Of a stretch of DNA of 64,000 nt, positions 31,199-64,000 are shown piece after piece. The notes beneath the pieces are model-generated. The model saw nothing but the letters and a program-made list of their open reading frames with translations. It searched no databases and was not told the origin of the DNA. The translations under genes were made by a program, and so were the position numbers. The DNA comes from Candidatus Avelusimicrobium aviculae (GTDB taxonomy: Bacteria > Elusimicrobiota > Elusimicrobia > Elusimicrobiales > Elusimicrobiaceae), in NCBI GenBank assembly GCA_944324655.1, contig CALUXF010000004.1, positions 1 through 64,000 on the forward strand, read 5' to 3'. Within the stretch, counting starts at the first letter, position 1. Each line of letters opens with the position of its first letter.

Positions 31199-31333
31199 TT
31201 ATAAGAGCAGGCACGACGCGTATTTTTATATATAATATATTGTATGCGTTGGGCCGGCACGTCGTATTTTATGTAGCAGTACACCGCAACAGATTTGGGA
31301 TATATTCAATTAAATAATAGCCGGTTTAAGGTT

Positions 31334-35899: not shown

Positions 35900-35914
35900 A
35901 GGTAGAAAAGATTT

Positions 35915-37825: not shown

Positions 37826-37860
37826 ATTTTTATTAATTAACAGCGTTTTAAGGAGAATTT

Positions 37861-38613
37861 ATGAAAAAAGGAGTATTCTTGCCGTTTATCGTGGCGCTTG
37901 GCGCGGCGTTGGTGTATTTGTTAATTGTTAACAGCGCGTCCAGCAAATTAGAAAATGACAAAGTCATTAAACGTGTTTTTGTGCCTATCCGGGACATAAA
38001 AGAACGGGAAGTGATTAAAAGAGATTCCATTAAATGGGTTCCCATACCGGCTAAATATGTACAAAAAGACGCGTTAACTTATTCTACCGATTCGGATTTT
38101 GCATCCATTGAAAACGCTGTTGCCCGTATTCAGATTCCCAAAGGGAACCAAATTTCAAAATATGCCATCACTTCGTTATCCCCGGAAGCGGGGCTTTCCA
38201 GTAAAATTCCGGCCAGAATGAGGGGTTTTATCATCCGGGTGGATTCTGCTTCCGCGGGGATGATTAAACCGGATGACAACGTGGATATTTTATTAACGTT
38301 TTCTGCCGTGATGAAGAACGGTTCTCCCCAAAAAGTAACGGTAACCCTTTTACAGAATATTAAAGTGTTGGGCGTCGGCGCGAACTTGGGCCAAGGTTTG
38401 GATGCCAAGAGTGCCGCCGGCTTGCAAAGCAAAGAGGAAGAAGCCGCCGCGTATACGGATAGCTCCACTTTGTCTTTGGCTCTTTCCCCGCGTGACGCGC
38501 AGTATTTGGCGTTGGCGCAGTCCGAAGGGGAAATTTCCGTCATCTTGCGTTCTCCCGGAGATGGGACCAACTACTTGATGGAAATTGCTACATTTGAAAA
38601 ATTATTTCAGTAA
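37861..38613 (+). CDS. cpaB: Pilus assembly protein CpaB/RcpC
   Basis: CpaB proteins sit in the periplasm and support the Tad secretin. The 250-residue product has an N-terminal membrane anchor (about 5-25), a SAF domain (VPIRDIKEREVIKRDSIKWV, residues about 42-110) and the RcpC domain with SAGMIKPDDNVDILLTF and a late LALSPRDAQYLALAQSEGEI. AAGGAG precedes the ATG. Confidence 0.9.
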   Translation: MKKGVFLPFIVALGAALVYLLIVNSASSKLENDKVIKRVFVPIRDIKEREVIKRDSIKWVPIPAKYVQKDALTYSTDSDFASIENAVARIQIPKGNQISKYAITSLSPEAGLSSKIPARMRGFIIRVDSASAGMIKPDDNVDILLTFSAVMKNGSPQKVTVTLLQNIKVLGVGANLGQGLDAKSAAGLQSKEEEAAAYTDSSTLSLALSPRDAQYLALAQSEGEISVILRSPGDGTNYLMEIATFEKLFQ

Positions 38614-38625
38614 ATAGGAACCATC

Positions 38626-39372
38626 ATGATAAAAACAAACTTTATTACTAAGATATCTGTAGCCGTGTTTTTAGTGGCCATGTTGGCCCCGTGCGTGCAC
38701 GCAAAAAAGACCCGTTTGGTATCTGTCAGCGCAGACGTGGTTGAAATTGCCGGCTCCATGAGCTCTGTTAAAGGTTTTGCATGGAACCAAATCTTTGACT
38801 TTGAGGAAGCCGCCATCCCGGGTATTTTTTCACTGGGCGATTTTGAACGTAAAACGGCGGTGGCTACCCGTCTTAGACTTATGGAAAACGAGGGCCGCGC
38901 GCAGATTTTATCCAACCCCAAAATTGTTACCAGTTCCGGCAACCAAGCCAACATTTCCGTGGGCGGACGTATTCCCTACCCGGTGGTGAACAGCCAGGGC
39001 GCCGTGGGTACGCAGATGGAAACCTATGGGGTATTATTAAACGTAACTCCCACCATTATTCCGGAACGCGGAAACATTATTGATTTACAGCTGGAATTAA
39101 AAGTGTCCCAGCCGGACTATTCCCGCGCTATTATGATTGGTACTTCCACCTCTTACTCTATTTTGGAACGTTTGGTGCAAACCCATGTAGAACTTAACAG
39201 CGGGGAAACCTTGGTTATTGGTGGTTTAAAAAGCAGCAGCCGCAACGTGTCGGAAGACCGCGTGCCGTTTTTAGGCCGTTTGCCTTTAATTGGTTTATTC
39301 TTTAAGAGCAAAGACGTAACGGAAGACCAGCGTTCTTTGTTCCTGTTTGTAACGGTAGAGGTAGTTGAATAG
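38626..39372 (+). CDS. Short Tad secretin (CpaC/RcpA-like, secretin core only)
   Basis: The outer membrane channel of the Tad system. The 248-residue product has a signal peptide and then almost only the C-terminal secretin domain: RAQILSNPKIVTSSGNQANI, GVLLNVTPTII, LNSGETLVIGGL and PFLGRLPLIGLFFKS. CpaC proteins are usually well over 400 residues with N-terminal BON/N domains, which are absent. The short form could rely on CpaB or on the large envelope proteins downstream for periplasmic contacts. Confidence 0.87.
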   Translation: MIKTNFITKISVAVFLVAMLAPCVHAKKTRLVSVSADVVEIAGSMSSVKGFAWNQIFDFEEAAIPGIFSLGDFERKTAVATRLRLMENEGRAQILSNPKIVTSSGNQANISVGGRIPYPVVNSQGAVGTQMETYGVLLNVTPTIIPERGNIIDLQLELKVSQPDYSRAIMIGTSTSYSILERLVQTHVELNSGETLVIGGLKSSSRNVSEDRVPFLGRLPLIGLFFKSKDVTEDQRSLFLFVTVEVVE

Positions 39373-39377
39373 AGTTT

Positions 39378-41684: not shown

Positions 41685-41697
41685 CACGGAGTTTTAA

Positions 41698-44276: not shown

Positions 44277-44289
44277 AGAGGATTAACCT

Positions 44290-45654: not shown

Positions 45655-45672
45655 TATAGAGGATTTGAGATT

Positions 45673-46779: not shown

Positions 46780-46803
46780 CCGGTTCGTTTAACGGGAGAG
46801 TTT

Positions 46804-47073
46804 ATGAGAGTAGAAATTAAAAAGATAGCAATCGGCAATGTAATTTTTTCCGCTTTTCCGGTGGCGGTGTTTGCGGTAATGTTAATTACTGCTTTGTTGG
46901 AATTGTTTAATCCGGACGGGTCCGTCACGTTGGATTACATTATGACTTTGATTATGCGTTCTATTCAAGGAACTTTGCTTACGTTGGTAAGCGTGGTGTT
47001 CTTTTTATTGGCGTATAACATTTTGTGCGCTGTGGGAATTCGCGGCGTAAGGGTAGAATTAGAAGACAAATAA
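46804..47073 (+). CDS. Small two-helix membrane protein (DUF3566-like)
   Basis: 89 residues with two hydrophobic segments (about 12-35 and 52-75) and the ending LLAYNILCAVGIRGVRVELED. The YN..a..GG..v.L.. pattern after the second helix resembles DUF3566 proteins, a family of unknown function. It lies between the HAMP sensor and the thioredoxin-fold gene with short gaps. Confidence 0.6.
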   Translation: MRVEIKKIAIGNVIFSAFPVAVFAVMLITALLELFNPDGSVTLDYIMTLIMRSIQGTLLTLVSVVFFLLAYNILCAVGIRGVRVELEDK

Positions 47074-47090
47074 ATAGGAGATTACAAACG

Positions 47091-48038: not shown

Positions 48039-48074
48039 AAAACGTGCAGAACTAATCATTTAGTTTCTATAATA

Positions 48075-48110
48075 AAAGCGGGGGCTGGTTTGCCAGTCCC
48101 CGCTTTCCCT
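48075..48110 (+). terminator. Terminator at the end of the Tad locus
   Basis: AAGCGGGGGCTGG pairs with CCAGTCCCCGCTT around TTTG, with one mismatched or wobble pair, followed by a broken T-run (TTTCCCTT). Confidence 0.75.
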
Positions 48111-48134
48111 TAAATATAAAACGGAAGGACGTTC

Positions 48135-50030: not shown

Positions 50031-51138
50031 GATTTTAGTGGTAGACGATGACAACAATTTGCGCGAAACCATGGTGGATTTGCTGGAAATTGAGGGCTAT
50101 AAAGTTTATCAGGCCGGAAATGCCAAAGAATGTTTGGATATTTGTACCAATGAGTTTTTTAACGTTATTTTAATGGACTATAACCTGCCTGACGAAACCG
50201 GCCTGGAACTTATACGCAAGATCCGCGCTTTTAACCAGGATTCCCAAATTATTATGATTACCGCTTACGCTTCATTAAACGCCATTATGGAAGCCATGCA
50301 GGAATCCGTCTATGATTTTTTGGTCAAACCGGTGGATTTTGACTATTTAAAACGCACGATTTCCCGTGCTTTGGATAAGTACTTTTTGGAACAAAGCAAT
50401 AAAGAATTGCTGATCCAGCTCAAACAGCGTAATGAAGATCTTGATCGGTTGAATAACATGAAATCCAAATTCTTTTCTATTGTATCGCATGATTTGTCCA
50501 ACTCTCTTATGACGCTGAAAATGAGTTTTGATATGCTTAAAAAGAAATTGCAATCCCCTGATGCGGACCAAACCCGAAAAATGATGTTCATGGACGAAAG
50601 CATCAGCCAAATTGAACACTTAATTAAAGATTTGGTGGACTGGGCCGCTATTGAAAAAGGCAAGTTGCGTATAGAAAAAGCAAAATTTGAATTAACAGGC
50701 AGCCTTAAAAAGACGGCGGAAATTTTTAAAGCCAAAGCGGCAAAGCGTTTTATTGCGGTTACCTTTGAAAGTGAAGGGGAAATTGGCGTTTTTGCCGATG
50801 AGAAACGCATCCGCCAAGTAATATCTAATATTTTGGAAAACGCCGTCCGTCATACGCCCGACAATGGCAAGATTGCCATACAGGTTGGCAGAATGGACGA
50901 AAAAAATGCTAAAGTATCGGTTACAGACTCTGGGGACGGAATAGACCCGGTTCAGGCCCCTGATTTATTTACCAGTTTTACCCAGGTAGGGGATAAATCC
51001 CGCGTGGGCCGTTTAGGGCTGGGGTTATCCATTGCCAAGGATATTGTGGTAAATCATGGGGGGCGTATTTGGGCCCAGAGCGAAGGTTTAGGAAAAGGGG
51101 CCACGTTTACTTTTACGTTGCCTATTGTTACTTTATAG
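50014..51138 (+). CDS. Soluble receiver-histidine kinase hybrid
   Basis: 374 residues without membrane segments. Residues 1-120 are a receiver domain with the acidic pair VDDDNN and the phospho-acceptor Asp55 in LMDYNLPDETG. HisKA follows with His159 in VSHDLSNSLMTL, then the ATPase domain: NILENAVRHTPDNGKI, DSGDGIDP and GLGLSIAKDIV. This order (receiver first) suggests a relay step: it could take phosphate from the upstream membrane kinase and pass it to the downstream NarL-type regulator. Confidence 0.93.
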   Translation: MEKEAKILVVDDDNNLRETMVDLLEIEGYKVYQAGNAKECLDICTNEFFNVILMDYNLPDETGLELIRKIRAFNQDSQIIMITAYASLNAIMEAMQESVYDFLVKPVDFDYLKRTISRALDKYFLEQSNKELLIQLKQRNEDLDRLNNMKSKFFSIVSHDLSNSLMTLKMSFDMLKKKLQSPDADQTRKMMFMDESISQIEHLIKDLVDWAAIEKGKLRIEKAKFELTGSLKKTAEIFKAKAAKRFIAVTFESEGEIGVFADEKRIRQVISNILENAVRHTPDNGKIAIQVGRMDEKNAKVSVTDSGDGIDPVQAPDLFTSFTQVGDKSRVGRLGLGLSIAKDIVVNHGGRIWAQSEGLGKGATFTFTLPIVTL

Positions 51139-51165
51139 TTTTAACTTGGATATGGGAGCTAACAC

Positions 51166-51855
51166 ATGAATAAAAAGAAAAAAGTGTCCGTGTTAATTGC
51201 GGATGACCAAACGCTTTTCCGCGAAGGCATCAAAGATGTGCTGACCAACGAAAAGTGGATTGAAGTGGTAGGCGAAGCAGCCGACGGAGTAGAAGCCGTT
51301 GCTTTAGCTAAGAAACTTAAGCCGGACGTGGTATTAATGGATATTAAGCTGCCTAAAATGGACGGTATATCCGCTACCAAGCAAATTCGTTTGGCCGTTC
51401 CGGAAGTAAACGTGCTTATGCTGTCTAGCTTTGAGGATGAAGCCCATGTGTTGGATGCTATTCAAGCGGGCGCCAACGGGTATCTGTCTAAAATGCTGCC
51501 GGCGGCGGAGTTGGTAAATTCCATTAAAACATTTACCAGCGAAGGGCTGATGATTCCCCAACAGCTGATGGGCAAGTTATTGCACGGCTTACGCAAAATG
51601 GGGGACGGCTCTATGCCTTCTCAAGCTACTTTGACCAAAACGGAAATCAAGGTTATGGATCTGTTAGGCAAAGGCATGAGCAATAAAGAATTGGCCAAAG
51701 AACTGGATTGCAGCGTTAAAACCATTAAAAATCATTTAAACAGCGCGTTTCATAAGCTGGGTGTAAGCAGCCGTACGGAAGCCGTGGTAAAAGCAATAGA
51801 AAAGGGGCTTATATCCTCTGAAGGAACGCGTATTTCCGATGAATACGGAGAATAA
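51166..51855 (+). CDS. NarL/LuxR-family response regulator
   Basis: 229 residues. Receiver domain 1-125 with IADDQTLFREG and phospho-acceptor Asp59 in LMDIKLPKMDG; C-terminal LuxR-type helix-turn-helix (TKTEIKVMDLLGKGMSNKEL, then TIKNHLNSAFHKLGV). Likely DNA-binding output of the two-component set. Its stop lies inside the next pilin gene, so regulator and pilin are translationally linked; the pilin and envelope clusters downstream are plausible targets. Confidence 0.94.
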   Translation: MNKKKKVSVLIADDQTLFREGIKDVLTNEKWIEVVGEAADGVEAVALAKKLKPDVVLMDIKLPKMDGISATKQIRLAVPEVNVLMLSSFEDEAHVLDAIQAGANGYLSKMLPAAELVNSIKTFTSEGLMIPQQLMGKLLHGLRKMGDGSMPSQATLTKTEIKVMDLLGKGMSNKELAKELDCSVKTIKNHLNSAFHKLGVSSRTEAVVKAIEKGLISSEGTRISDEYGE

Positions 51856-52039
51856 ATCCGCCATGTTTTTAAAGCAAAAGCGCCAAAACAAACTGGCCGA
51901 TAACAGCGGGCAGGCTACTATAGAGTACGTCCTGATGTTAGGGACAGTAGTTACTTTGTTTTCCGCTTTTATTATGCTTTTTAATAAAGATATTGTGCGT
52001 ATTTTCTTTTCGTTTATCGGGATGTTAATGGGTTACTAA
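51839..52039 (+). CDS. Flp-type pilin, second locus
   Basis: 66 residues with a long basic leader, processing site NSG then QATIEYVLML (Glu +5, Tyr +6) and a hydrophobic helix, ending in IGMLMGY. The start overlaps the response regulator gene by 17 nt; an internal ATG at 51863 is an alternative. A separate subunit from that at 37097. Confidence 0.78.
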   Translation: MNTENKSAMFLKQKRQNKLADNSGQATIEYVLMLGTVVTLFSAFIMLFNKDIVRIFFSFIGMLMGY

Positions 52040-52041
52040 AT

Positions 52042-53154
52042 ATGATGGGCATTTTAGGGCGTATATGTAAACGAACCATAAGCAACAACCGGGCGCAGAT
52101 TTTGCTCCCGGCGGTGTTGCTGGCTCCCATTTTTATATTGGTTATTTACCTGCTGTTTGAAACCTCTAAAGTGTCTATGTATAAAATACGTAACCAGTTC
52201 GCGCTGGATAATGCGGCGTACAGCCAAATGTCTTCTTTATCGGTCTATTTAAATGCGCTTGCGTATACCAACGGAAATATGCCTTACAGGGTAATGAAAA
52301 GTTACAACGCGGATTATTTATCCCCTAAAGGGGCTGCCGGGACCAAGGGGAAATATACCGTATTTGACGTTTTTTACCAGGCGGGGGCTTTCCCCGCGTT
52401 AGGGCCTGATCACGCCGACAACGCCGGATATAACCCCAATCCAGCTCCCACTTCGGATGATTGGGATTATGCCTATTATCAAGACAAGCGTAAAAATTGG
52501 AACAAAGAACAGCCTTCCGATTCTCCCGATGAGGAAGGCCGTTACGTACTAACCAGTAAAAAAATAGCGGACGAAAACTTTTTTCCGTCCACCTCTATTG
52601 GCGTTCCCAGCTTACAGCAATACATCACAATCTATTTATTGCTGGGGCAGATTTACCAACTCCAAACTTTCTCTTACCAAGATACCACCCGCGACGCGCG
52701 CATGTTCCGGGAGGCGTACTATTTAAACTCGCCTTCCTGCCGCAACCAGCGGGATTGCGCCCGCCAAAGCGCGGCCATTATGGCCAATTATGTTAAAGTG
52801 CAGTCCAAACCGTTTGAGATTGATAAAGTGCGCGCTTATTTTTCGGAAGACATCGGAACCACTATGACCTCTGCTTATCCGGTGGATTTGGATATGTCTA
52901 CGGACGTGAAAAAGAAATTATTCCAATTTTCTTATTTAGATTCTTCCAGCTTGGATAAGCTTAAAAAATTGCGCAACGGCATTAAGCTGGAGCAAGGGTA
53001 CCAATTGCCCCTCAATAACTTTGATATCAACTTAACGGTTAAATATAAGCCTAAAGTTCGTACCCAAGTGGGCTTGCAGTGCCCCCGCAGCGGCAATAAT
53101 TGCGTGTGGCCCAACCCGCTTCCTAAATACAGCATAAGGATGCAGCCTTCATGA
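52042..53154 (+). CDS. TadE/TadG-like protein with one membrane helix
   Basis: 370 residues: basic N-terminus, then RAQILLPAVLLAPIFILVIY, a pilin-like helix that lacks the usual Glu at +5, and about 330 extracytoplasmic residues with no clear domain; cysteines occur in two pairs (SPSCRNQRDC and QCPRSGNNC). It fits TadG-like proteins by position and topology. It overlaps the next gene by 4 nt. Confidence 0.65.
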   Translation: MMGILGRICKRTISNNRAQILLPAVLLAPIFILVIYLLFETSKVSMYKIRNQFALDNAAYSQMSSLSVYLNALAYTNGNMPYRVMKSYNADYLSPKGAAGTKGKYTVFDVFYQAGAFPALGPDHADNAGYNPNPAPTSDDWDYAYYQDKRKNWNKEQPSDSPDEEGRYVLTSKKIADENFFPSTSIGVPSLQQYITIYLLLGQIYQLQTFSYQDTTRDARMFREAYYLNSPSCRNQRDCARQSAAIMANYVKVQSKPFEIDKVRAYFSEDIGTTMTSAYPVDLDMSTDVKKKLFQFSYLDSSSLDKLKKLRNGIKLEQGYQLPLNNFDINLTVKYKPKVRTQVGLQCPRSGNNCVWPNPLPKYSIRMQPS

Positions 53155-53684
53155 TAGATTTGTCTTTTTTACGCCAACGGAAAGGACAGGCCACTACGGA
53201 GGTGGTGCTGTTGTTTCCGTTGTTTGTTATTTTTGCGGTATTTATCATTAAAATATTCGGTTTGCTCGTTTTAAACCAAAAGATGGAAATTGCCGCTTTT
53301 TATGCCGCGCGGCGTTATCAGCTGCAGGGCGGGGTTCCGGATTCCATGCAAAACTGGAACAGGCAGTTTTTGGAAAAAGACATCAAAAAGAAAGTGGAAG
53401 ATTACCTAGGTTTTAATAATACGGGTATGAAAACTTTTTTAAGTTTGCGGCGTTTTACCCTGGAAGTGGATACCTCCGGTACGTGGACATTGGTTACACT
53501 AAAGGTTTTTACTAATCCGCCCCGTATTCGTTTTTTATGCAATTACGATAAATTTGAAGTGTGCAAAGGGGATAACCGCTGTTATAAAGGGTATGAATAT
53601 TTGTGTGATACCGGCGGTGAGATTGAGGTCAAAAAATTTGTAGGTAAAAATGACCGCGTAATGCCGTATGTACAGCCGGATTAA
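53151..53684 (+). CDS. TadE-like pseudopilin, second locus
   Basis: 177 residues, leader RQRKG then QATTEVVLLFPLFVIFAVF (Glu +5), one membrane helix and an extracytoplasmic domain with five cysteines in the last 60 residues (FLCNYDKFEVCKGDNRCY, YLCDTGGE). Last gene of the unit; a new promoter lies 34 nt downstream of the stop. Confidence 0.75.
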   Translation: MIDLSFLRQRKGQATTEVVLLFPLFVIFAVFIIKIFGLLVLNQKMEIAAFYAARRYQLQGGVPDSMQNWNRQFLEKDIKKKVEDYLGFNNTGMKTFLSLRRFTLEVDTSGTWTLVTLKVFTNPPRIRFLCNYDKFEVCKGDNRCYKGYEYLCDTGGEIEVKKFVGKNDRVMPYVQPD

Positions 53685-53702: not shown

Positions 53703-53765
53703 AAGGGGAATTCTCCCTTGACAAGGCCCTTTTGGTTGCTTATACTAAAAGTACACCCTAAAGGG
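53703..53765 (+). promoter_or_regulatory. Near-consensus sigma-70 promoter with flanking inverted repeats
   Basis: TTGACA (53718-53723), 17-nt spacer, TATACT (53741-53746): the strongest promoter seen in the window. AAGGG (53703-53707) and CCCTT (53715-53719) form an inverted repeat overlapping the -35, and CCCTAAAGGG (53756-53765) lies just after the expected start at about 53753. The same half-sites on both sides suggest a repressor or activator operator. Confidence 0.75.
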
Positions 53766-53773
53766 AAATTTAT

Positions 53774-53845
53774 ATGAAACTCTGTGTTTGGGCGTATGTA
53801 TGTGTTGACGTACGGGCCGACAGGAGTAATTTTTATATCATGTAA
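53774..53845 (+). CDS. Possible 23-residue leader peptide
   Basis: ATG at 53774, with AAAGGGA about 6-12 nt upstream, opens a 23-codon frame (MKLCVWAYVCVDVR...) ending in TAA at 53845, 13 nt before the next gene start. It lies wholly inside the mRNA leader. It could be chance; there is no repeated-codon attenuator pattern or clear hairpin. Confidence 0.3.
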   Translation: MKLCVWAYVCVDVRADRSNFYIM

Positions 53846-53858
53846 AAAGGGACAGTTT

Positions 53859-55166
53859 ATGTTTAATTTTAAATCGCCGTTGGCCGGCAAAGTATTTAAA
53901 AAACTAAACCATATGGATAAAAAACAAGCCTATACATATGGTGGTATTGCTATTGTGGTACTGGTGGCGCTGCTCACATTGGCGGCAGCTTCCGGAAGCG
54001 GGCCGGATGATTCTTTTGAAGATTTGCAGGGCCGCGGTTACGATTTGGCCCAAATGCCTTTTGTTAACGATGAGGCGGAACAGTTTTTATTAGCTTCTAA
54101 ATACCCGGATATGCGCAACAATAACGTAAACGCTATCTATTCTAAAGAAGAAAAAGAGGCCCGCCAAGCGGAAGATGCCCAGGAAGAAGGCCAACAAGAG
54201 GATAATTCTTCATCGGAAGAGTCTTCTGCTTCTTCGGGCGCATACACCGGCTACCGCGGGGGCGGGGGGAGCGGCTCTGCCCGCACTCCTACGCAAATAG
54301 GTTCTTTTACACCCAGCGGGTCCATGGCGTCAGCCAGCGGTGGAAACACGACTGCCACTTTTGGCGGTACTGTAAAGGGGGATTTTTCTCCTTTTCAACG
54401 TGAAGATAAAGGAAAGGAAGCCCCTTTTGTAGACCCGAATAACGCCCGCCAGGCGTTAGCCCGTTTTAATTCCGCCAGCCGTGCGGCGGCGCGCGGCGCC
54501 AATAAGGCGCGGGATTCCCAAAAAGCGTTGTTTGGTTCTCATGTATCGGGAACCGGCGGCTTTGATTCAAACGGGGTTCCGTTATCCGGTACCGGTGACG
54601 GCATCAACTATTCCGATGCCGATACCCCGGATTTAAGCAATCTGGAAAAAACCATGCAAGACCGCGCAGCCGATGCCCGTGAAAAAGCGCAAGAGCAGCA
54701 ACTGCAGGAAGAAGAAAGTTTAGGGCGTATGTTCTTGGAAGGATTAATGCAAATTGGTTTAGACCTTGCAAAGCAGTTTCTTGGCAATGCCCTTAATAAG
54801 TGGAGCGCTTCTGCCCAAAATAACAGCTATGCCAAGAGTGTATATGGCACGAATTTATCCGGTTTATCTGCAGGAAGCGATGTTCCTGCTTCTTGGAGCT
54901 CAGATACTATCAACAGATATGCAGATTTAGGTTATATAAGTAAAGGGAGCAACAACACCTATACCATTACGCCCGAAGGGTCTTCATTTTTTATCAATAA
55001 CGTTCGTTCCTCTAGCGGTGGCGGCGGAAATATTTTTGGAAATGGTCTTTTAGATACGCCTACTATGGAAGGATATGGCAGAACAACGAATAGAGACCCG
55101 GTAAAACCTGGAAATAATCAGACGGATACCCCGAAACCAAAAGATCCGTATACGCGTACGATATAG
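53859..55166 (+). CDS. Membrane-anchored protein of unknown family (envelope cluster gene 1)
   Basis: The start at 53859 is chosen over one at 53784 because AAAGGGA precedes it. The 435-residue product has a basic N-terminus (KSPLAGKVFKKL), a membrane helix (about 27-46), a Glu/Gln/Ser-rich stretch (about 105-130), a Gly/Ser-rich stretch (about 130-180), and an Ala/Arg-rich helix ARFNSASRAAARGANKARDS (about 200-220) that faintly recalls the repeat in genes 2 and 4 of this cluster. No enzyme motif. It is the first gene after the strong promoter. I do not recognise it; probably a structural envelope protein. Confidence 0.8.
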   Translation: MFNFKSPLAGKVFKKLNHMDKKQAYTYGGIAIVVLVALLTLAAASGSGPDDSFEDLQGRGYDLAQMPFVNDEAEQFLLASKYPDMRNNNVNAIYSKEEKEARQAEDAQEEGQQEDNSSSEESSASSGAYTGYRGGGGSGSARTPTQIGSFTPSGSMASASGGNTTATFGGTVKGDFSPFQREDKGKEAPFVDPNNARQALARFNSASRAAARGANKARDSQKALFGSHVSGTGGFDSNGVPLSGTGDGINYSDADTPDLSNLEKTMQDRAADAREKAQEQQLQEEESLGRMFLEGLMQIGLDLAKQFLGNALNKWSASAQNNSYAKSVYGTNLSGLSAGSDVPASWSSDTINRYADLGYISKGSNNTYTITPEGSSFFINNVRSSSGGGGNIFGNGLLDTPTMEGYGRTTNRDPVKPGNNQTDTPKPKDPYTRTI

Positions 55167-55213
55167 GAACGGGTGTTTTATTTACGGTCCCAATAGCAGT
55201 TTTGGAGGTTTAT

Positions 55214-56770
55214 ATGAGATTCTTATTTAAATTTTTTCAAAGCAAGGCGGGGAAAGCGATGCTTTCCGGCACCCAGGCGCTTGCCGCTTCAGCAGCGGTT
55301 GGGTTGGGCTGTGTTGCCGCTTGGCAGATTTTAGGGTCTGATTCCAATTCAGACAATGCCTTCAACTCGTTAGGATACCAACCACAAGAAGAGGTGGTCT
55401 ATGTATCCGGCGCGGCCACCGGCCAGTATGGTCTTGAGGATCATACAGAAAGTGCTTTCCGGGCGGCTCCTTCCAAAGCGATTGAAATGCAGCAGCGGGA
55501 AGCGGAATACTTGCGCCAGCAAGAGTTGGAGCGGGAGGCCGCTGAGCGGGCCGCTTATGAAGCGCAAACTTCAGCTCCGGCGGTAGATGCTAACCCGATA
55601 GGGGGGATAAACGAAGGGTTAGGCAATAAAAAGATGGAAGCGTTTTCTCCGGAGCAAATTAAAGCCATGCAAGCCCAAGCGCTGCAACAAGCACAGGCGG
55701 CCGCTTCAGCGGGAAAGGCGCAGGCGGATGCCATTGCCGCGGCGGCGGCCAGCGGTGTGAGCGGGGCGGCCACGCGCAGCGGCGCATTAGGGGCTGCTTA
55801 TGGCGGTGGTACTATGGCAGGCAGCGGTTTGTCGGCCGGGGCTGGCGGTTCCGCCCAATATGTGGGGATGCCCGGGACGGTCGATTCTGGTAAAAATTTA
55901 AACGGCTCTGATGGTATTACCACAGGTACAGACGCTGTGTATTTGCCGGAACAAGAAGGGGCCCGTATTCCCAATGCCCGCAACCAGCGTGCCAAACCCA
56001 GTTTTGGAGCGGATGTTAAACCAAGAGAAAACTCCAAAGATTTTAACAGTTTGGAATTAATGGCCAAACGTTCTGCGGAAATTGCCGGGAACGAAACCCG
56101 TTCCGCTAACGAAGCCGGGCGCGCCTTTATGGCCAGCACAAAAAATTCCGGCGGTATTCGTTTAGACGGTGTAGGAGAGGTTTCTGTAGGACAGGGCGCC
56201 AGTTCAGATGACTTTGGCGACGCTTCTTTATCCGGCATTAATGGGGCGGTAGGTTCCGCTATGGACGAAATAATGACCGAAGAGGAGCAGTTTCGCCAAG
56301 AACGCAAAGATTTGCGTAAGAAATTAAGAAAACTGATAGGCTATACGTTTATTGCCTTTGCGTGTGCCTTTCCTTTCTTAGGCTGGTTAGCTGTACGCGG
56401 CAAATTTAACGAGTACTATGCCGCCGCCGAGGAATATGATAAAGAATATGGAGACCGCAGCAAAGAAGCCAAAGCCGGTAAGAAAATTGCCAATAAACTT
56501 AAAATCTGCGCCAAGGCCGGCGGTTTTGGTTTAGTATTATTTGGGGCAATGATCCCTTGGATGTTAGCGGATGCTTTTGGTTGGACGACTTCTGTAGACA
56601 AGCTAAAAGCAGAGGACGATTCTGCCGAACAAGGCCGTGTGGGTTCTGTGCGTGGCAGTTCCAGCGGCAATGAGCCAGGCTCTACTTTGGATGTAACAGA
56701 AGGTAGCTCGGCCAGTGATGCCAGTTCCCGGCGCGCCCAAGAATATATGTCGCGTACGGACGGACGCTAA
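55214..56770 (+). CDS. Membrane protein of unknown family (envelope cluster gene 2, paralogue of gene 4)
   Basis: 518 residues from the ATG at 55214, which has GGAGG upstream. The N-terminus (FKFFQSKAGK, then a hydrophobic segment) matches that of the gene at 57072. Residues about 85-125 are a charged helix, about 145-190 are Ala/Gln-rich. A block at about 284-315 (KRSAEIAGNETRSANEAGRAF, then MAS..NSGGI) is shared with the gene at 57072. Two more membrane segments lie at about 373-393 and 435-455, and the tail is Ser-rich. Function unknown. Confidence 0.82.
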   Translation: MRFLFKFFQSKAGKAMLSGTQALAASAAVGLGCVAAWQILGSDSNSDNAFNSLGYQPQEEVVYVSGAATGQYGLEDHTESAFRAAPSKAIEMQQREAEYLRQQELEREAAERAAYEAQTSAPAVDANPIGGINEGLGNKKMEAFSPEQIKAMQAQALQQAQAAASAGKAQADAIAAAAASGVSGAATRSGALGAAYGGGTMAGSGLSAGAGGSAQYVGMPGTVDSGKNLNGSDGITTGTDAVYLPEQEGARIPNARNQRAKPSFGADVKPRENSKDFNSLELMAKRSAEIAGNETRSANEAGRAFMASTKNSGGIRLDGVGEVSVGQGASSDDFGDASLSGINGAVGSAMDEIMTEEEQFRQERKDLRKKLRKLIGYTFIAFACAFPFLGWLAVRGKFNEYYAAAEEYDKEYGDRSKEAKAGKKIANKLKICAKAGGFGLVLFGAMIPWMLADAFGWTTSVDKLKAEDDSAEQGRVGSVRGSSSGNEPGSTLDVTEGSSASDASSRRAQEYMSRTDGR

Positions 56771-56779
56771 GGGGGGCTT

Positions 56780-57049
56780 ATGGCGGAAAAATTAATTTTA
56801 ACAGACAAAGAAGTAAAATTTTTTAAACGGGCCGGCTGGGTATATGGAATATTAACTTTAGTATGGCTTGTATGGATGGTAGTTGGATGGACTGGATATT
56901 TTCATAATAAAGCTATTTTAGACAAGCAGGAAGCGGAGTATGAATTAAAGCAGGAAGAAATGCGCCGCATACAAAGTTTTATGCGTGCGACGCAACTTAA
57001 TTCTTCCGCCGCTGTAAATCAAAGTCTAAACGCCGTAACGGGAGAATAA
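56780..57049 (+). CDS. Tiny membrane protein (envelope cluster gene 3)
   Basis: 89 residues: a membrane helix (about 17-38, Trp-rich) and then a charged coiled-coil-like segment (KQEAEYELKQEEMRRIQ). It sits between two paralogous large genes, with ribosome-binding site AAGGGGGG. Similar in layout to the 70-residue gene at 58545, so these may be dedicated partners of the large proteins. Confidence 0.72.
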   Translation: MAEKLILTDKEVKFFKRAGWVYGILTLVWLVWMVVGWTGYFHNKAILDKQEAEYELKQEEMRRIQSFMRATQLNSSAAVNQSLNAVTGE

Positions 57050-57071
57050 AAATAGTTTACCGGAGGATTTT

Positions 57072-58535
57072 ATGAACCTGTTTCATTTTTTAAAAAGCAA
57101 AGCGGGCAAATTTGTACTAGGCCTGCCGCAGAAGGTAATTTTAACAACCGGGTTGGGCGCGGCGGTAGTTGGAGCCATGGTTTTAACCAGCGACAGACAG
57201 CCCGCTTCCCAAGATGAAGCCCGTGTGCGCAGCTCCGTCATCAGCACCTATGGCCGTAATGAAGTAAATCCGGCGGAGTCTATGGGTGAAACGGTTCAAA
57301 TCGCGGGTGCGCAGGGTATTACTTCCGCCAATGATACTTTGGCTTCCGCCGGGTATGACTGGGCCGGAGATGATGCCAGCCTGGCGGCAGTGGGCCAGTT
57401 AGGCAATAACATGGGCGGCGGCAAAACCCCTGCCACACGCGCAATGGGCGGCCGCAGCGAAGGCTTGGGCGGAAATAATGATATTGTGGTGGTGGACCAA
57501 AAGCCTGATTCTAACGGCGGGGACGCGTTAGCCGCGGCGGGAGCCGCCGGCGGAGCGCGTGCGGCGGCTATGGCCCAGCGCGGCATAATGGCAACGGCTT
57601 CCGGCGGGGTGTCTGGGGTTACTTATGGGGGGGCTTCCTCCCGCTCCGGTAAGGACGGCGCCGGCGGAACAGTAAATAGAAGCGGTAATTCCTTGGGCCT
57701 TGTGGGAGGGGAAGCGTACCGCTTGTCCGGTTCCATGCCGGAAGGTTCCACTTTATTGGCCAGCACTAAATTTCAAGATGTAGATTCTTCTTTTGGCGCT
57801 TCCCGTAATGCGCGCGCGGGCCGCGGTATGGAGTCTGGCGAAGGGCGCACCTTGGAACAGGTTAGAAAACGCTCCGCGGATATCGCTAAAAACAAATACC
57901 GTGCCGCCAACGAAGCGGGCCGCGCTTTTATGGCCAGCTCCCAAAATTCCGGCGGGATACAGGTTGAAGACGCGCAGCTGTCTGAAGGGGCCGTTATGTC
58001 TGATGATTTTGAACAGGCCACCATTAACGCCCGCAAAAATTTAGATCAGGCAACAGACGATTTAATGGAAAAAGAATTGGAACGCCAGCAAGACCGTACC
58101 CGTTTGAAACGTGCCTTAGTGGCGTTGGTTTTCTTAACCATTCCCGCCATGTTTGCCATTACCGCTTTGTTTAAAGCTTCTCCGTGGGGAACTATCGCGG
58201 CCCTTGCTATCGGCGCGGCGATGATGTTGGCCATCACGCTGTTCTTGGTAGACGCTGTCCAATGTATGAAAAAATGGGGCGGCAGCGGTTTGACGACGGC
58301 TTGTATGATTGTTGGGCCTATCTTAATGGCTTTAATAGGTATTTCTTATATTCAAGCGGTGGCACAGTTAGTTCAAAAATTTGCTGGTTGGTTGAATAAT
58401 CTCTTCGGGGCTCCTATTGTAGGCGGCGTTTCGGGTGTGGGCGCGTTGACTGGGGCGGGAAGCCAGGTTATTAATTCCAGCAAAGCCATTTCAAACAACA
58501 AAAAAGATCTTGCTGACCAAGACATGAACGGATAA
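57072..58535 (+). CDS. Membrane protein of unknown family (envelope cluster gene 4, paralogue of gene 2)
   Basis: 487 residues. N-terminus FHFLKSKAGKFVLGLPQ and a hydrophobic segment, as in the gene at 55214. A Gly/Ala/Ser-rich middle part (about 110-240) is followed by the shared block KRSADIAKNKYRAANEAGRAF and MAS..NSGGI (about 265-297). Three membrane segments lie at about 343-365, 370-397 and 408-430, with a Gly/Val-rich end. CGGAGGA precedes the ATG. Function unknown. Confidence 0.82.
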   Translation: MNLFHFLKSKAGKFVLGLPQKVILTTGLGAAVVGAMVLTSDRQPASQDEARVRSSVISTYGRNEVNPAESMGETVQIAGAQGITSANDTLASAGYDWAGDDASLAAVGQLGNNMGGGKTPATRAMGGRSEGLGGNNDIVVVDQKPDSNGGDALAAAGAAGGARAAAMAQRGIMATASGGVSGVTYGGASSRSGKDGAGGTVNRSGNSLGLVGGEAYRLSGSMPEGSTLLASTKFQDVDSSFGASRNARAGRGMESGEGRTLEQVRKRSADIAKNKYRAANEAGRAFMASSQNSGGIQVEDAQLSEGAVMSDDFEQATINARKNLDQATDDLMEKELERQQDRTRLKRALVALVFLTIPAMFAITALFKASPWGTIAALAIGAAMMLAITLFLVDAVQCMKKWGGSGLTTACMIVGPILMALIGISYIQAVAQLVQKFAGWLNNLFGAPIVGGVSGVGALTGAGSQVINSSKAISNNKKDLADQDMNG

Positions 58536-58544
58536 GGGTGTGTT

Positions 58545-58757
58545 ATGGCAAATATAGACATCAAATTAAGGCGTTTTATAGGCATAGCTTTGCTGGTAGT
58601 AATAGTGCTTACGTGTTTTGGCGTTTGGTTGTATTTTGACTTCCAGTATAAAGACGCTACGCGCGAGTTAAACGAATACCGTGCCCAAAAGGCGGAAAGG
58701 CAGAGCCGCCAGGAACAATTTTTAAAGTTCCAGCACAAATATGGCACCCGTCCATAG
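58545..58757 (+). CDS. Tiny membrane protein (envelope cluster gene 5)
   Basis: 70 residues with one membrane helix (about 11-31) and a charged coiled-coil-like C-terminus (TRELNEYRAQKAERQSRQE). Ribosome-binding site AAGGGTG. Same layout as the gene at 56780. Confidence 0.7.
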   Translation: MANIDIKLRRFIGIALLVVIVLTCFGVWLYFDFQYKDATRELNEYRAQKAERQSRQEQFLKFQHKYGTRP

Positions 58758-58772
58758 TCAAAAGAGGGTTTT

Positions 58773-60380
58773 ATGGTAGACCAGCTTCCTCCGGATTATC
58801 CTTCTTCCGCACCGGCTCAAAATGAGCCGGTGCGGAAACAGGCATCCCCAGTAAATCAGGATTCTTTGTCTTCACAAGAAACTTTGCATGTAAAAGAGGA
58901 AAGTATCCCTTCCAATAAACGGTTTTTTCAGAAAAAGTGGTTTTCTAAAAAATATTTAGCACTCGCGCTATTATTATTGTTGTTTGGGGGAGTGGGTGGC
59001 TTTGTGCCCGTTAGCCATATTCCTGTTTTGTCGTCCTTGGCCCGTGCTATGGGATATAGTGAAGAGCAAATGCAGCAAATGTCTTTCTTAAAGACATTAC
59101 TGTTTTGGGCGGATGACGAACGCGGGCCGGCGGCCCGTTTGGCTGCCAATTCATATTCTGTTTTTTCTACCCAGCCGGGTCGTTTTGATGCCATTAACCG
59201 CGGGGCTTCCGCTTATGGCGCGGTGGGGGAAGAGTCTTCTACATTAATTGATTTTCAGGCATTAAATGATTCCTTGCGCCGCCAGGGAAAGCCGGTGGAT
59301 GCCATTTCCGGGGTGGCCCTCAATACGGGGGATGATTCCGGACAGGGGCAAATTCGCTTTAACAGAGGCATTAACCAGCTTAGTAAAGACGCCAGCGCTT
59401 CCGCCCAAGCCAAAACAGAGATGTATTATGGGGAAGACACTTCTTTAATCGCGCGTAATCCGGCGGACGGATATGATGCTTCGTTAGGGTTAAAAAAGTT
59501 GAAAGTGGGGGTAGTGGGTTCTTCTCAGAGTGATTGGAAAAATGAAATTTTTCAAAAAGCTATTTTAGAGCAGACTTCCGGCTTAGACAAAAAATTAGGG
59601 GGAACAAATTCTGCCATGATGATGCTGCAAAACGCCGGGAAGTCTTTAACGGATTTTCGTTATATTTGGCTTACCAGCCAGGCCTCTAACCGGGCTAAGC
59701 AGATTCCGCTTAAAAAAACATTGGCGGCAGCCGGTTTTTTTGCGGAAGAAATGCCCCAAAAAGTGTTTAGTGCCACCGGGGGCATAGCCATAGCCGGGTT
59801 GGAGGAAGATGATGTTGTGGCGGATATTGAAACGGCCCAAGAACAGCAGCAGCGCCAACAGGAATGTGATGAGGCTTCCCGCACGCTGGGCCCGCAGATA
59901 ACCAGTCTTACCCGCAGCGTAATTAATACCATTAATGCTTTGCAGGGAACGTTCCCCGCTTTTCCTGCGGATTGCGGCAATTCCGCCAAAGTAAATAGTT
60001 GGCGTTCCGCTTTGGCTCAGGCGCGCAGCGCTTGTTCCCAAGTGAAGCGGGATTATAATACGTTGGGAGAAAAATGTTTTGTACAGTTGAAATACAGCCG
60101 TTCCGGTGAATGCAGCACCAATAATTTAGACGATAAATTAAATGAATATGAACGGATGTGTACGGAATATTTAAAAGATCAGTCAGAGGCGGCAGAGGGT
60201 GAAGAGGTAGATTTATCTATTTATAACCCGGAACAATTTTCCAACCAACAAGTGACGGAAAGCGTGCACGGTACATTTAACGTGCCGGTGTGGGGCGGCT
60301 CTTCCGGGTCCTCCACTCCAAATGATTTCTTTCCGGAAACGGATCTTTCCGGTTCCCAAGGGTGGAGTTATATAGACTAA
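58773..60380 (+). CDS. Single-pass membrane protein of unknown family (envelope cluster gene 6)
   Basis: 535 residues: a polar Pro/Ser/Gln-rich cytoplasmic part (1-60), one membrane helix (about 63-83) and about 450 extracytoplasmic residues. A segment with six cysteines spans about 365-465 (QQECDEAS, PADCGNSA, ARSACSQVKRD, EKCFVQ, GECSTNN, RMCTEYL) and is predicted helical, so disulphides are likely. The end is acidic and Ser/Gly-rich. Ribosome-binding site AGAGGG. No known domain recognised. Confidence 0.78.
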   Translation: MVDQLPPDYPSSAPAQNEPVRKQASPVNQDSLSSQETLHVKEESIPSNKRFFQKKWFSKKYLALALLLLLFGGVGGFVPVSHIPVLSSLARAMGYSEEQMQQMSFLKTLLFWADDERGPAARLAANSYSVFSTQPGRFDAINRGASAYGAVGEESSTLIDFQALNDSLRRQGKPVDAISGVALNTGDDSGQGQIRFNRGINQLSKDASASAQAKTEMYYGEDTSLIARNPADGYDASLGLKKLKVGVVGSSQSDWKNEIFQKAILEQTSGLDKKLGGTNSAMMMLQNAGKSLTDFRYIWLTSQASNRAKQIPLKKTLAAAGFFAEEMPQKVFSATGGIAIAGLEEDDVVADIETAQEQQQRQQECDEASRTLGPQITSLTRSVINTINALQGTFPAFPADCGNSAKVNSWRSALAQARSACSQVKRDYNTLGEKCFVQLKYSRSGECSTNNLDDKLNEYERMCTEYLKDQSEAAEGEEVDLSIYNPEQFSNQQVTESVHGTFNVPVWGGSSGSSTPNDFFPETDLSGSQGWSYID

Positions 60381-60392
60381 GCAAATTAGGTC

Positions 60393-60421
60393 TTGATAAT
60401 TTTAGTTTCAGTTGCTAAGAT
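60393..60421 (+). promoter_or_regulatory. Possible promoter of the last gene in the window
   Basis: TTGATA (60393-60398), 17-nt spacer, TAAGAT (60416-60421). Five of six and four of six matches. It would give a leader of about 145 nt before the ATG at 60575. Confidence 0.45.
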
Positions 60422-60448
60422 AATAGTATAAGCAGTTTTGAAGTGCCC

Positions 60449-60474
60449 TGTTGTATGGGGAAAGCAGTACAACA
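60449..60474 (+). other. Hairpin in the leader of the 60575 gene
   Basis: TGTTGTA (60449-60455) pairs with TACAACA (60468-60474) around a 12-nt loop. There is no T-run, so it is not a terminator; it may be a regulatory or stabilising RNA element. Confidence 0.4.
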
Positions 60475-60574
60475 ATTTGTAAATGAAAAGGTTGTGTAAT
60501 TGGGGATTTTAAAAATCCGGCAATTCCAGCCTGGTTTATATTTATAGTTAAATTTATTTTTATAGGAGGCACTT

Positions 60575-63500
60575 ATGCCAGAGGAAAAAAAGGAAAGTTT
60601 TACCTTTAGCGATAAGATCAAGAACAGCAAATCCGCCGCTCCTGCATCTTTTGCTAATCGTATTTCCTCCAAGATAGGGAGTAATGGCCGCCCAAAGAAA
60701 ACGCTTTTTGAGCGTACCAAACGGGACGCGCCGTTCTTTATTGCGGCGTTGGTAGCCCTTTTGTTATTGCCGTTTTTGTATAAATACAGCGGCCAAGTGA
60801 ACGAAGAGGCTATTATTGCTCCTTCCAGCGAGGACACTATTTTTGATCCGGAACGCTATGGTTTTGATACGGCCATTACGGATCCTGACGGTGAAATTGC
60901 TCAGCTTTCAGGGCGTGATCCGTTGAGCCTTATTAAAGGCTGGGGCAGTGATGAAGATTCTGCGGAAACTTCCTACGACTATGACCGCAGCGGTTTAGAG
61001 GACAGCAGCTCTTCTTATACGTCTTCTCCCACCACGGAGACCACGACGAATATTTACAGAAGAACCGCCGCCCCGGCTACCCGTGCGGCCGTTCGCCGTT
61101 CTACCACTAAAATTAAAGAAATGGGCCGCGCCGCCATGGCTTCTGCCGGCGGGGGGTTAAATATTACTCCTTGGGGTGGCAGTTTAAAAGGCGCTGCCAA
61201 AAAAGTAGGGGCGCCCACTCCTGTAACGCCTCCCAAACCGGTGTCATTGCAGCCTTTGCAGGCCGCAGGCCGCCCGCAGCGCGGGTATTTTGGCATGGGT
61301 GCCGGAGAGCAAGCCCGCCGTTCAGCGCAAGCTTTAACCAAAGGAGATGCCATGCAAGCGCTGCGCGACGCGCAATACGCGCCGATTAAGCCCGGCCGCG
61401 TGGGCGGTTTAGCTGCCGGCGAGTCCCGCATTGGCGGCGGTCCCAGCGATTTAAAACACGGCTTTGGCTACAAAGGCATTCTCCCTTGGTGGTGGGATTT
61501 AATGAAAACCCGCTCTCAAATGGAATGGGAAAAACGCTTTAACCGCAAGTGGGACTGGATTGGCTGGGCAGACAAATTGGCTCAAAATATTTTGGGCGGT
61601 TTAATTAATTGTTTGATTACCGGCGAAGACGACGGCGCCATGGGCGAGATGTTTGGCGCCAGCGGGGAAGGTGCCCAGCAGGAAGGCTGCAAATGCGGCA
61701 AATCCATGATTGGGTCCGTTCCGGCCAGCGCACCGGCGGGGCTGTCTTTGAAAGATTGGTGTAAATCCAAAGAAGCCAAAGAACAATATGGTTGCGAATG
61801 GCAAGGCGCCAAAGCAACTGGCGGCGGCTTCTGGAAAACCCGTGCCGATTGTATAGGTTTCAACTTGTTTGGCTTGGCTGACAAAGGCAAGGCAAGCCGC
61901 CGATTAGTGGAAGCCAGCGGTTGCTATGATTTTGCGTCTACGGACGTTTACACCGCTTCGTTCATAAGCAACCGCAAAGGCGATTGGAACATCTACCACT
62001 ATGTGGTGGGTGTAAAAGCTGCGGACATTGCCCGTTATTATAAAGCTACGGAAAATGCACGCGCGGATATGTTGGAAGTATTTTATATGGATGAAGGCCC
62101 TGTTTTCCGCACGAAAGCGCAAGTATATGCGGACAAAACAGGTTATGTGCCGTTGTTTATTGAAAGCGTAGCTTTTGAAAAAGACTTAAAGTCTGAAGTG
62201 AATGCGGACGGGACCCGCTCTTTGGACGTAACTGTTAAGACTAAAAATGAAGAAGGGGAAACCGTCAGAGAAAGCCGCTCTTTACCTTTGAAATATAACG
62301 AGTTTATCGGCTTATTGGCCAGCGGACGCAATGTTTCCTATGCCACCAAGAGCGCTGTTGTAAAATCGGAAGGCATGTACCCGGTAACCAAGGCGGCTAT
62401 GCGCACGAAACCCGGCAAATTGGGGCGTGACTGGCTGATTGGCGCGCGCTGTGAATTCCCGTTAGCGCGTATTACTTGCGAAGATAACGCCATGTTGAAA
62501 AAAGACGGGAACCAAATTCCTTATGCGCGTGTAACGCTTCTTAACGCGTCGGGAGACAAGGTAACTTATAACGAAATTAAAGATAAGTTCACCATTATGT
62601 ATTCCGTGTGGGATTCTGCCAAGGCGCAGTTCTCTAAAACGTTTGAAGGGGTTACTTCCGTTCGCCATTACGAACCGGCGGATTATACGGTGGAACGTGA
62701 CACGGTAAAAGCCAAAACCACGGCCGCGCGCGTAGGCGCAGAAACCCGCGGAATGGAGCTGGATGTACTGGCTACCAATATCCCGAAAGGGCAGCAGCCG
62801 CTTCGCATTCGTTGGTTTATCCGCCAGGTAGAGGGTATCAATGAAGGGAAATATGCACCTGGGGAATCCTTGGAGTTGCATGTTTCCGCCAACGCGGAAC
62901 AAACCCGTACGGAAATTGGCCCCGGTCTGCCGGGTACGGAAGTAAGCATTGCGGAATGTTCTTATTATGATGAAGTGAGTATCAACCCGCCCGTGCCTCC
63001 TACTCCGGAAGAAGAGCCGGACCCGGAACCGAAGCCGACCGGTGGTTCCAAAACGGCGCGCATAGAATTAGGGTTTTTAATTAAAGCCTATGCCAATGAG
63101 TTTAAATGCGGCGGCGCCAAAGCTCCTGAAGGGGCTAACGTAAAGTACCGTATGTCTACGGATGGCATCAATGCCAATATAGAAGCGGCCACTATGAGAC
63201 AGCTGTTTGTAAAATATGCGTTCTCTTGTATGGAATGCGTGGAAAGCTATACCCAAATTCTTACAAACCAGCTGCTTAAAAAAGCCCAGCAAATGCACGA
63301 GCAAGACCCCACTATCATTGTGCCTACCCAACAAGAGGTGCAGGAATATATTAAGCAGCACAGCGGTGAAATTCCGGTAGCGGTGTTCTTGCAGGCTTTA
63401 CTGTTGGATGAAAATCCGAACTTCACCATCCGGGGTGACTCTGTGTGTTATTTGGCGCATCAAGTGGCTTCCTGGTCTGTGGATCCGGACGTGAATGACA

Positions 63501-64000
63501 GCCGGTTTGAAAATACGTTTGGTACGTATGCGGTGTACGTCAGCCCGACGGCCGCGGCGTTCTATCCCGGCCGCTCCATTGATGAAAATTATACGGCCAA
63601 CCCGCGTTTTAATAAACCGGGCTGGAACCGCGGCAATGACGTGTATCCGTCGGATATTCCGTATAATAATTCCTTGGAAGCGCGCAAACGCAAATACAGT
63701 GCGTATCCGTATTCCACCAATCCGGAGATTGTAAACAGAAATAGAGGCCACGGCGGGTACCCGTTACGGGCGTTAGCCAACGGCAAGGATTCTTTCCCCT
63801 TAGGGAACAGCGCCGCCCCCGCTATGTACAGAGGCAAATATAAAACGCAGTATATGCCCATGTTCTCCGGGCAGTGCCAGAGTTTGAGTTCTGTACAAGT
63901 AGCCAAGAAGGATTTGCAGCAATATGTTAACTTGGTATGTACAAACGGCTTGCAGTATAAGCCGGATGCAAATCCCGCTAAGAAGTTTTATAATGCTGGA
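60575..64000 (+). CDS. Very large membrane-anchored protein of unknown family (3' truncated)
   Basis: An open frame of 1142 codons runs from the ATG at 60575, which has AGGAGG upstream, to the end of the window without a stop. The product has a basic N-terminus, one membrane helix (about 53-71), an acidic and Ser/Thr-rich stretch (about 85-160), and an Ala/Gly/Pro-rich stretch (about 160-290). Then comes a region with WWWDLMKT and several cysteines (CKCGKS, WCKSK, CEWQG), a long domain predicted rich in beta strands (about 450-800), a Pro/Glu linker (PPVPPTPEEEPDPEPKP, about 810) and a further domain with CMEC. Probably inserted in the inner membrane with most of the chain outside. No known family recognised. 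Confidence 0.85.
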   Translation, partial: MPEEKKESFTFSDKIKNSKSAAPASFANRISSKIGSNGRPKKTLFERTKRDAPFFIAALVALLLLPFLYKYSGQVNEEAIIAPSSEDTIFDPERYGFDTAITDPDGEIAQLSGRDPLSLIKGWGSDEDSAETSYDYDRSGLEDSSSSYTSSPTTETTTNIYRRTAAPATRAAVRRSTTKIKEMGRAAMASAGGGLNITPWGGSLKGAAKKVGAPTPVTPPKPVSLQPLQAAGRPQRGYFGMGAGEQARRSAQALTKGDAMQALRDAQYAPIKPGRVGGLAAGESRIGGGPSDLKHGFGYKGILPWWWDLMKTRSQMEWEKRFNRKWDWIGWADKLAQNILGGLINCLITGEDDGAMGEMFGASGEGAQQEGCKCGKSMIGSVPASAPAGLSLKDWCKSKEAKEQYGCEWQGAKATGGGFWKTRADCIGFNLFGLADKGKASRRLVEASGCYDFASTDVYTASFISNRKGDWNIYHYVVGVKAADIARYYKATENARADMLEVFYMDEGPVFRTKAQVYADKTGYVPLFIESVAFEKDLKSEVNADGTRSLDVTVKTKNEEGETVRESRSLPLKYNEFIGLLASGRNVSYATKSAVVKSEGMYPVTKAAMRTKPGKLGRDWLIGARCEFPLARITCEDNAMLKKDGNQIPYARVTLLNASGDKVTYNEIKDKFTIMYSVWDSAKAQFSKTFEGVTSVRHYEPADYTVERDTVKAKTTAARVGAETRGMELDVLATNIPKGQQPLRIRWFIRQVEGINEGKYAPGESLELHVSANAEQTRTEIGPGLPGTEVSIAECSYYDEVSINPPVPPTPEEEPDPEPKPTGGSKTARIELGFLIKAYANEFKCGGAKAPEGANVKYRMSTDGINANIEAATMRQLFVKYAFSCMECVESYTQILTNQLLKKAQQMHEQDPTIIVPTQQEVQEYIKQHSGEIPVAVFLQALLLDENPNFTIRGDSVCYLAHQVASWSVDPDVNDSRFENTFGTYAVYVSPTAAAFYPGRSIDENYTANPRFNKPGWNRGNDVYPSDIPYNNSLEARKRKYSAYPYSTNPEIVNRNRGHGGYPLRALANGKDSFPLGNSAAPAMYRGKYKTQYMPMFSGQCQSLSSVQVAKKDLQQYVNLVCTNGLQYKPDANPAKKFYNAG

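What the first reader, a model, noticed from the sequence alone, without database searches (positions are those of the whole stretch)
53703..64000. Unknown envelope gene cluster beside a Tad pilus locus: best candidate for an undescribed system
Six or more genes in one direction encode only membrane-anchored, exported-looking proteins with no recognisable enzyme domain. Large and tiny members alternate, and the cluster starts from the strongest promoter of the window directly after pilin-like genes. All large proteins have a basic N-terminus followed by a membrane helix and long Gly/Ser/Ala-rich or cysteine-bearing regions. The Tad locus upstream lacks the periplasmic part of its secretin, so these proteins could form the missing envelope scaffold. 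The link to Tad is inference from position.
Basis: partly seen in the sequence, partly recalled or inferred. Interest (0 to 1): 0.8.

Follow-up and report, generated by a model that had tools for sequence, protein, structure and literature searches.

The report
Unknown envelope module of Tad pili
Next to their adhesive Tad pilus genes, Elusimicrobia carry a conserved set of membrane-anchored proteins of no known family, one with a readily exchanged outer half; this looks like an undescribed add-on to a known pilus machine that may replace its missing cross-periplasm connection.

Summary
Genes a-g (53,859-64,072; g runs 72 bases past the window) encode N-in, membrane-anchored, low-complexity exported proteins with no significant Pfam, NCBIfam, PHROGs, PADLOC or PDB match. 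Order TadG-TadF-a-b-(c)-d-(e)-f-g is conserved in 29 of 36 informative family loci. It recurs, with barely recognisable sequence, downstream of TadF in other families of class Elusimicrobia. Class families without Tad also lack g. Against a near relative (G131), Tad plus a-f differs as one allelic block. A near-consensus promoter starts the module in 29/30 loci and moves with it. The local secretin lacks RcpA's N-domain and CpaB lacks RcpC's C-terminal hairpin, the two halves of the known inner-outer membrane joint. Protein g pairs a conserved anchor with an exchangeable ~700-aa head. Best reading: a class-specific Tad envelope scaffold displaying a variable head. The joint function is well supported; the mechanism is inferred. 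Sister family f2 keeps the module but not beside Tad.

The parts
53718..53746 (+). Promoter-like site TTGACA-17-TATACT at the head of the module
   Evidence: 11/12 match; present in 29/30 TadF-a gaps; also before relocated modules and before the solitary g of G034; exact pattern once in the genome
53859..55166 (+). a: 435-aa N-in signal-anchor protein, conserved DLAxMPF..AExxLLASKYPDM motif after the TM
   Evidence: homologues in f2 and basal f1 and in f7
55214..56770 (+). b: 518-aa protein, N-terminal TM, Gly/Ser/Ala-rich middle, C-terminal TM segments; paralogue of d
   Evidence: 92-nt repeat shared with d at 78%
56780..57049 (+). c: 89-aa TM protein with charged helical tail
57072..58535 (+). 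d: 487-aa paralogue of b with C-terminal TM segments
   Evidence: hhalign to f2/f7 proteins E=1.9e-7
58545..58757 (+). e: 70-aa TM protein resembling c
58773..60380 (+). f: 535-aa signal-anchor protein with helical, cysteine-bearing C-terminal domain
   Evidence: five invariant Cys in 34 relatives; helical model, mean pLDDT 58; hhalign to f2/f7 E=4.8e-12
60575..64000 (+). g: 1165-aa signal-anchor protein (true end 64072): conserved anchor to about residue 420, then an exchangeable head of about 700 aa
   Evidence: hhalign to f2 E=1.7e-17
51839..53684 (+). Flp pilin and Tad minor-pilin genes (TadG-like 52042-53154, TadE/F-like 53151-53684) directly upstream of the module
   Evidence: TadE Pfam hit at E=1.5e-4, 22.3 bits, just under the 22.9 cut-off; order conserved to f7 and f8
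37861..38613 (+). CpaB/RcpC, 250 aa, lacking the C-terminal linker and hairpin of RcpC
   Evidence: PF16976 E=3e-20; alignment to RcpC 9gzr
38626..39372 (+). Secretin, 248 aa, core only: no N-domain and no C-terminal S-domain
   Evidence: PF00263 E=3e-41; alignment to RcpA 8odn

Best explanation
a-g is a class-specific accessory module of the Elusimicrobia Tad (type IVc) pilus machine. Shown from sequence: the proteins have an N-terminal membrane anchor with a positive cytoplasmic end (so their bulk is predicted beyond the inner membrane); the module shares its neighbourhood, presence and replacement history with Tad; g has a fixed anchor and an exchangeable head. Inferred: a, b, d and f, with the small c/e proteins, form an abundant scaffold around the Tad base that links inner and outer membrane complexes, standing in for the secretin N-domain and the RcpC hairpin that are missing here. 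The scaffold would also carry g, whose long flexible linker could place the variable head at or beyond the outer membrane for contact with host, prey or phage.
For: Conserved order downstream of TadF in 29/36 informative loci and in families f7, f8 and basal f1. Homology across families. Class families without Tad (f3, f4, f9) lack g. One allelic block from CpaB to f against G131. All module families retained although split over three sites in G034. Near-consensus promoter moving with the module, pointing to strong expression. Truncated secretin and CpaB throughout the class members examined. Head exchange in g. PMC13170226 states that Tad systems differ in how they connect outer and inner membrane complexes.
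Against: Sister family f2 has the module in 38/38 good genomes but not beside Tad in the loci examined, and f2 genome G215 has g but no Tad found (95). About a fifth of Tad-bearing class genomes outside the order show no g by this profile. Class of G006 (f16/f18) has short CpaB without the module, so truncation and module are not strictly coupled. Low-confidence models, no interaction data, no localisation data. The allelic block is one genome pair.
Confidence: 0.5

Rival explanations
1. A separate surface display or contact system that only shares location and regulation with Tad: a-f form its own export and display platform, g is a polymorphic adhesin or effector carrier, and Tad pili bring cells into contact (compare Kil pili working with the T3SS* in Myxococcus, PMC12075869).
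For: Head exchange in g; own promoter; module intact away from Tad in f2 and in several f1 genomes; g present without detected Tad in G215.
Against: Class-wide synteny and absence together with Tad; shared replacement block with the Tad core; no recognisable transport engine within the module.
Confidence: 0.3
2. a-g are substrates or minor filament subunits moved by the Tad machine, forming part of the pilus or its tip.
For: Position directly after the minor pilins; variable head like the variable tip domains reported for Tad minor pilins (PMC12075869).
Against: No prepilin-type motif: none of the N-terminal TM segments of a-g carries the glutamate and preceding glycine seen in TadE/F (sequence); b and d have C-terminal TM segments; lengths and composition unlike pilins.
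Confidence: 0.1
3. Mobile or phage-derived gene set (lysis, structural or conjugation proteins) lodged beside Tad.
For: Only weak spanin-like hits for c and e (E 0.003-0.1), expected for any short TM plus coiled coil.
Against: No relatives on viral contigs, no significant PHROGs or PADLOC hits, conservation through a whole class.
Confidence: 0.02

Closest known systems
Tad pilus alignment complex: RcpC dodecamer bound to the RcpA N-domain (P. aeruginosa, PMC12307814)
   Same: Inner-membrane-anchored proteins encoded in a Tad locus with large periplasmic parts; the proposed role is the same, joining inner and outer membrane complexes
   Different: a-g share no sequence with RcpC or RcpA; CpaB and secretin are both present here but lack the interacting ends
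CpaI and CpaD of Caulobacter crescentus Tad (PMC13170226)
   Same: Lineage-specific accessory periplasmic or outer-membrane parts; CpaI is proposed to bridge secretin and CpaB
   Different: CpaI is one small periplasmic protein with a folded domain; here seven membrane-anchored, largely disordered proteins. Direct sequence comparison with CpaI or CpaD was not made
Kil tip complexes KilL/M/N of Myxococcus (PMC12075869)
   Same: Tad-linked proteins with variable exposed domains of unknown fold
   Different: Kil tips are minor pilins; g has no prepilin motif and is a signal-anchor protein
TonB/TolA-type periplasm-spanning anchored proteins (from general knowledge)
   Same: Short cytoplasmic N-terminus, one TM, long flexible linker, C-terminal folded part
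   Different: No Pfam hit to those families; head of about 700 aa, hypervariable

Membership tests
Tad (type IVc) pilus locus, for 37337-53684 | CpaB/RcpC, secretin, CpaF-type ATPase, TadB/TadC, Flp pilin, TadE/F minor pilins | tested here: met
   PF16976, PF00263, PF00437, TadE hits; two T2SSF domains in TadB/C. The Flp pilin at 51839 has no Pfam hit at cut-off and is called by position and length
Tad (type IVc) pilus locus, for 37337-53684 | Secretin with N-domain joined to the RcpC hairpin | tested here: not met
   Secretin starts within the core; CpaB ends about 57 residues short of RcpC
Accessory part of the Tad machine, for a-g | Conserved neighbourhood with Tad genes across families | tested here: met
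   f1, f7, f8; not f2
Accessory part of the Tad machine, for a-g | Physical association with, or requirement for, the Tad machine | not testable with these tools
   Needs complex prediction or experiment
Accessory part of the Tad machine, for a-g | Sequence or fold similarity to a solved Tad component | tested here: inconclusive
   No significant PDB sequence hits or Foldseek hits, but the models had low confidence
Type IV or Tad minor pilins | Prepilin cleavage site with glutamate 5 in the N-terminal helix | tested here: not met
   None of the N-terminal TM segments of a-g has it (sequence)
Phage structural or lysis proteins | Match to a virus protein family or presence on viral contigs | tested here: not met
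Anti-phage defence systems | Match to a PADLOC model | tested here: not met
   Only one hit, E=0.04

The most novel reading that the evidence does not exclude
A new kind of trans-envelope display machine: signal-anchored low-complexity proteins replace the canonical secretin-RcpC joint of Tad pili in a whole bacterial class and hold an exchangeable ~700-aa head at the cell surface.
Probability: 0.3. Interest if true: 0.8.

Novelty: new variant of a known kind. Interest (0 to 1): 0.6.

Why it matters
How Tad machines join their inner and outer membrane parts is an open question, and species appear to differ (PMC13170226). Here a whole class lacks both halves of the one solved joint, and most of its families carry a conserved module of unknown protein families directly after the minor pilins. 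That gives named candidates for a different joint, in bacteria common in animal guts. The exchangeable head of g marks a likely surface contact point with host, microbe or phage.

Tried and rejected
Family libraries (Pfam, NCBIfam, PHROGs, PADLOC) gave only chance hits for a-g, and Pfam on 36 g relatives gave 4 scattered weak hits. AF2 of f and g gave low confidence, so their fold searches are uninformative; the Ig-like top hits for g (E about 0.02) are not claimed. A phage origin was rejected. Single-sequence BLAST suggested that the module was restricted to one family; profiles overturned that. Apparent losses of g in G010, G141, G248 and G289 were not losses of the whole module, since each keeps gene a. 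A unique regulatory site was considered and rejected: the relaxed promoter pattern occurs in every genome tested, including genomes without the module, so it is an ordinary strong promoter. Literature searches found one remark on Tad in Elusimicrobia and nothing on these genes.

Full report
What is there. The window is part of a 92-kb contig of a 1.62-Mb genome. Relatives are Elusimicrobiaceae MAGs, mostly from animal guts, and one genome of the same genus is named Candidatus Avelusimicrobium. The Tad locus (37.3-53.7 kb) is followed by seven same-strand genes a-g, then a TPR gene and ksgA. All a-g proteins have a positive N-terminus and an early TM; b and d are paralogues with further C-terminal TM segments; f has invariant cysteines; g is 1165 aa. 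None has a significant match to a known family or solved structure.

Neighbourhood. In 40 relatives' loci, 4 were cut by contig ends. Of the other 36, 29 show TadG-TadF-a-...-f-g in the same order and 7 show the module or its parts elsewhere. In G103 the module sits just upstream of Tad; in G019 it lies about 200 kb away. In G034, a single 1,643,562-bp contig whose size matches E. minutum Pei191 from memory (name not confirmed), the module is in three places: a, a b/d and a c/e gene near 711 kb, f-h near 773 kb, g at 646 kb; Tad is near 1.3 Mb.

Depth. BLAST found g only in family f1. A profile reached basal f1 genera and, weakly, sister family f2. A profile built from those reached f7, f8, f12, f13 and f14 of the same class (f5 weakly) and, in reverse, the window's own g at E=6e-4. 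f2 has g in 55 of 59 genomes, 38 of 38 good ones. hhalign supports g (1.7e-17), f (4.8e-12) and b/d (1.9e-7) between f1 and the other families. In f7 genome G163 the order is FlgD-Ig, OMP, CpaB, secretin, CpaF, TadB, TPR, HAMP, HK, HK-RR, RR, TadG, TadF, an FtsH-like protease, a, three b/d-type genes, f, g. So the layout of the window is probably ancestral in the class. In f2 the module keeps its internal order but lies before an outer-membrane protein gene and dnaX in the loci examined, away from Tad.

Co-occurrence. CpaB is found in 238 of 295 phylum genomes, so Tad is far wider than the module. Within the class but outside the order the counts are 41 Tad+/g+, 11 Tad+/g-, 0 Tad-/g+ and 12 Tad-/g- (my tally; Fisher p=4e-7, inflated by kinship: at family level only p=0.09). 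TadC searches agree that f3, f4 and f9 lack Tad, and show that G293 and G081 have it despite the missed CpaB, which moves G293 to Tad+/g-. G215 is the one module-bearing genome with no Tad found.

One unit. Against G131, synonymous divergence is 0.05-0.42 in nearly all flanking genes (one 1789-aa gene is 0.53) but 0.45-1.35 in every gene measured from CpaB to f, and drops again in g (0.23). At DNA level the boundaries lie near 37 kb and 61.3 kb, the latter inside g. The simplest reading is one allelic replacement of Tad plus a-f plus the g anchor. It is one pair; G071 shows no such contrast because its whole backbone is that divergent.

Head of g. Residues 1 to about 420 are conserved and the rest is exchanged: many pairs at 0.7-0.9 identity in the anchor have only 0.20-0.25 in the head, while other pairs keep both. 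Against G071 identity falls from 0.87-0.93 to 0.16-0.36 past residue 400. Such exchange is typical of exposed parts (inference).

Missing joint. In P. aeruginosa, RcpC spans the periplasm and binds the RcpA N-domain by its C-terminal linker and hairpin (PMC12307814); RcpA has N-domain 28-112, core from 131 and an S-domain at the C-terminus (PMC10499894). The window secretin aligns 84-247 to RcpA 208-370, so after its signal peptide it begins inside the core. The window CpaB stops about 57 residues short of the RcpC chain. The same short forms occur in f2 and f7. Tad loci of other classes mostly have CpaB of about 280-305 aa, but f16 has a short CpaB without the module, so the coupling is not strict.

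Promoter. TTGACA-17-TATACT, or a one-base variant of its second hexamer in genus g2, lies before a in 29 of 30 loci and also before the relocated module and the solitary g in G034. It is a strong ordinary promoter, not a unique signal.

Verdict. The module is real, old and tied to Tad. That it works with the Tad machine is likely (about 0.75, my estimate). Scaffold plus displayed head is the best mechanism but is inferred (0.5). The protein families are new; the kind of system, a Tad pilus with lineage-specific envelope parts, is known.

Noticed in passing
L077:8720-10517, L082:11834-13623, L083:11500-13289: A phage portal (PF04860, E=1e-74) and a prohead protease (PF04586, E=1e-8) gene pair lies beside gene f in G034; look-alike pairs sit at the same place in two more genomes of that genus. 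It may be a gene transfer agent or prophage remnant.
   Followed up: partly
L168:14264-15973: An FtsH-like AAA+ protease (PF00004, PF01434) sits between TadF and a in f7 genome G163; a similar gene lies at that place in L183, and an AAA-like fragment lies before a in L184.
   Followed up: partly
window 39378-41684: The Tad ATPase CpaF is fused to an N-terminal MinD/TadZ-like domain (CbiA hit, E=1e-8), so the two usual Tad proteins are one here.
   Followed up: no
window 31295-36880: A 1534-aa protein with FlgD Ig-like domains and an outer-membrane-like protein precede the Tad genes; the pair is also found there in f7 (L169, L170, L177).
   Followed up: partly
window 8724-14090: A 1789-aa gene is a second locus of raised divergence against G131 (dS 0.53 against about 0.2 around it).
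   Followed up: no
L179:14143-16479: Genome G210 (f8) has a second, diverged g copy about 48 kb from the first, with a b/d-like gene nearby.
   Followed up: no
window 51166-51855: The response regulator of the Tad locus is 99-100% identical between relatives whose synonymous sites are saturated (dS above 1), which suggests very strong constraint.
   Followed up: no
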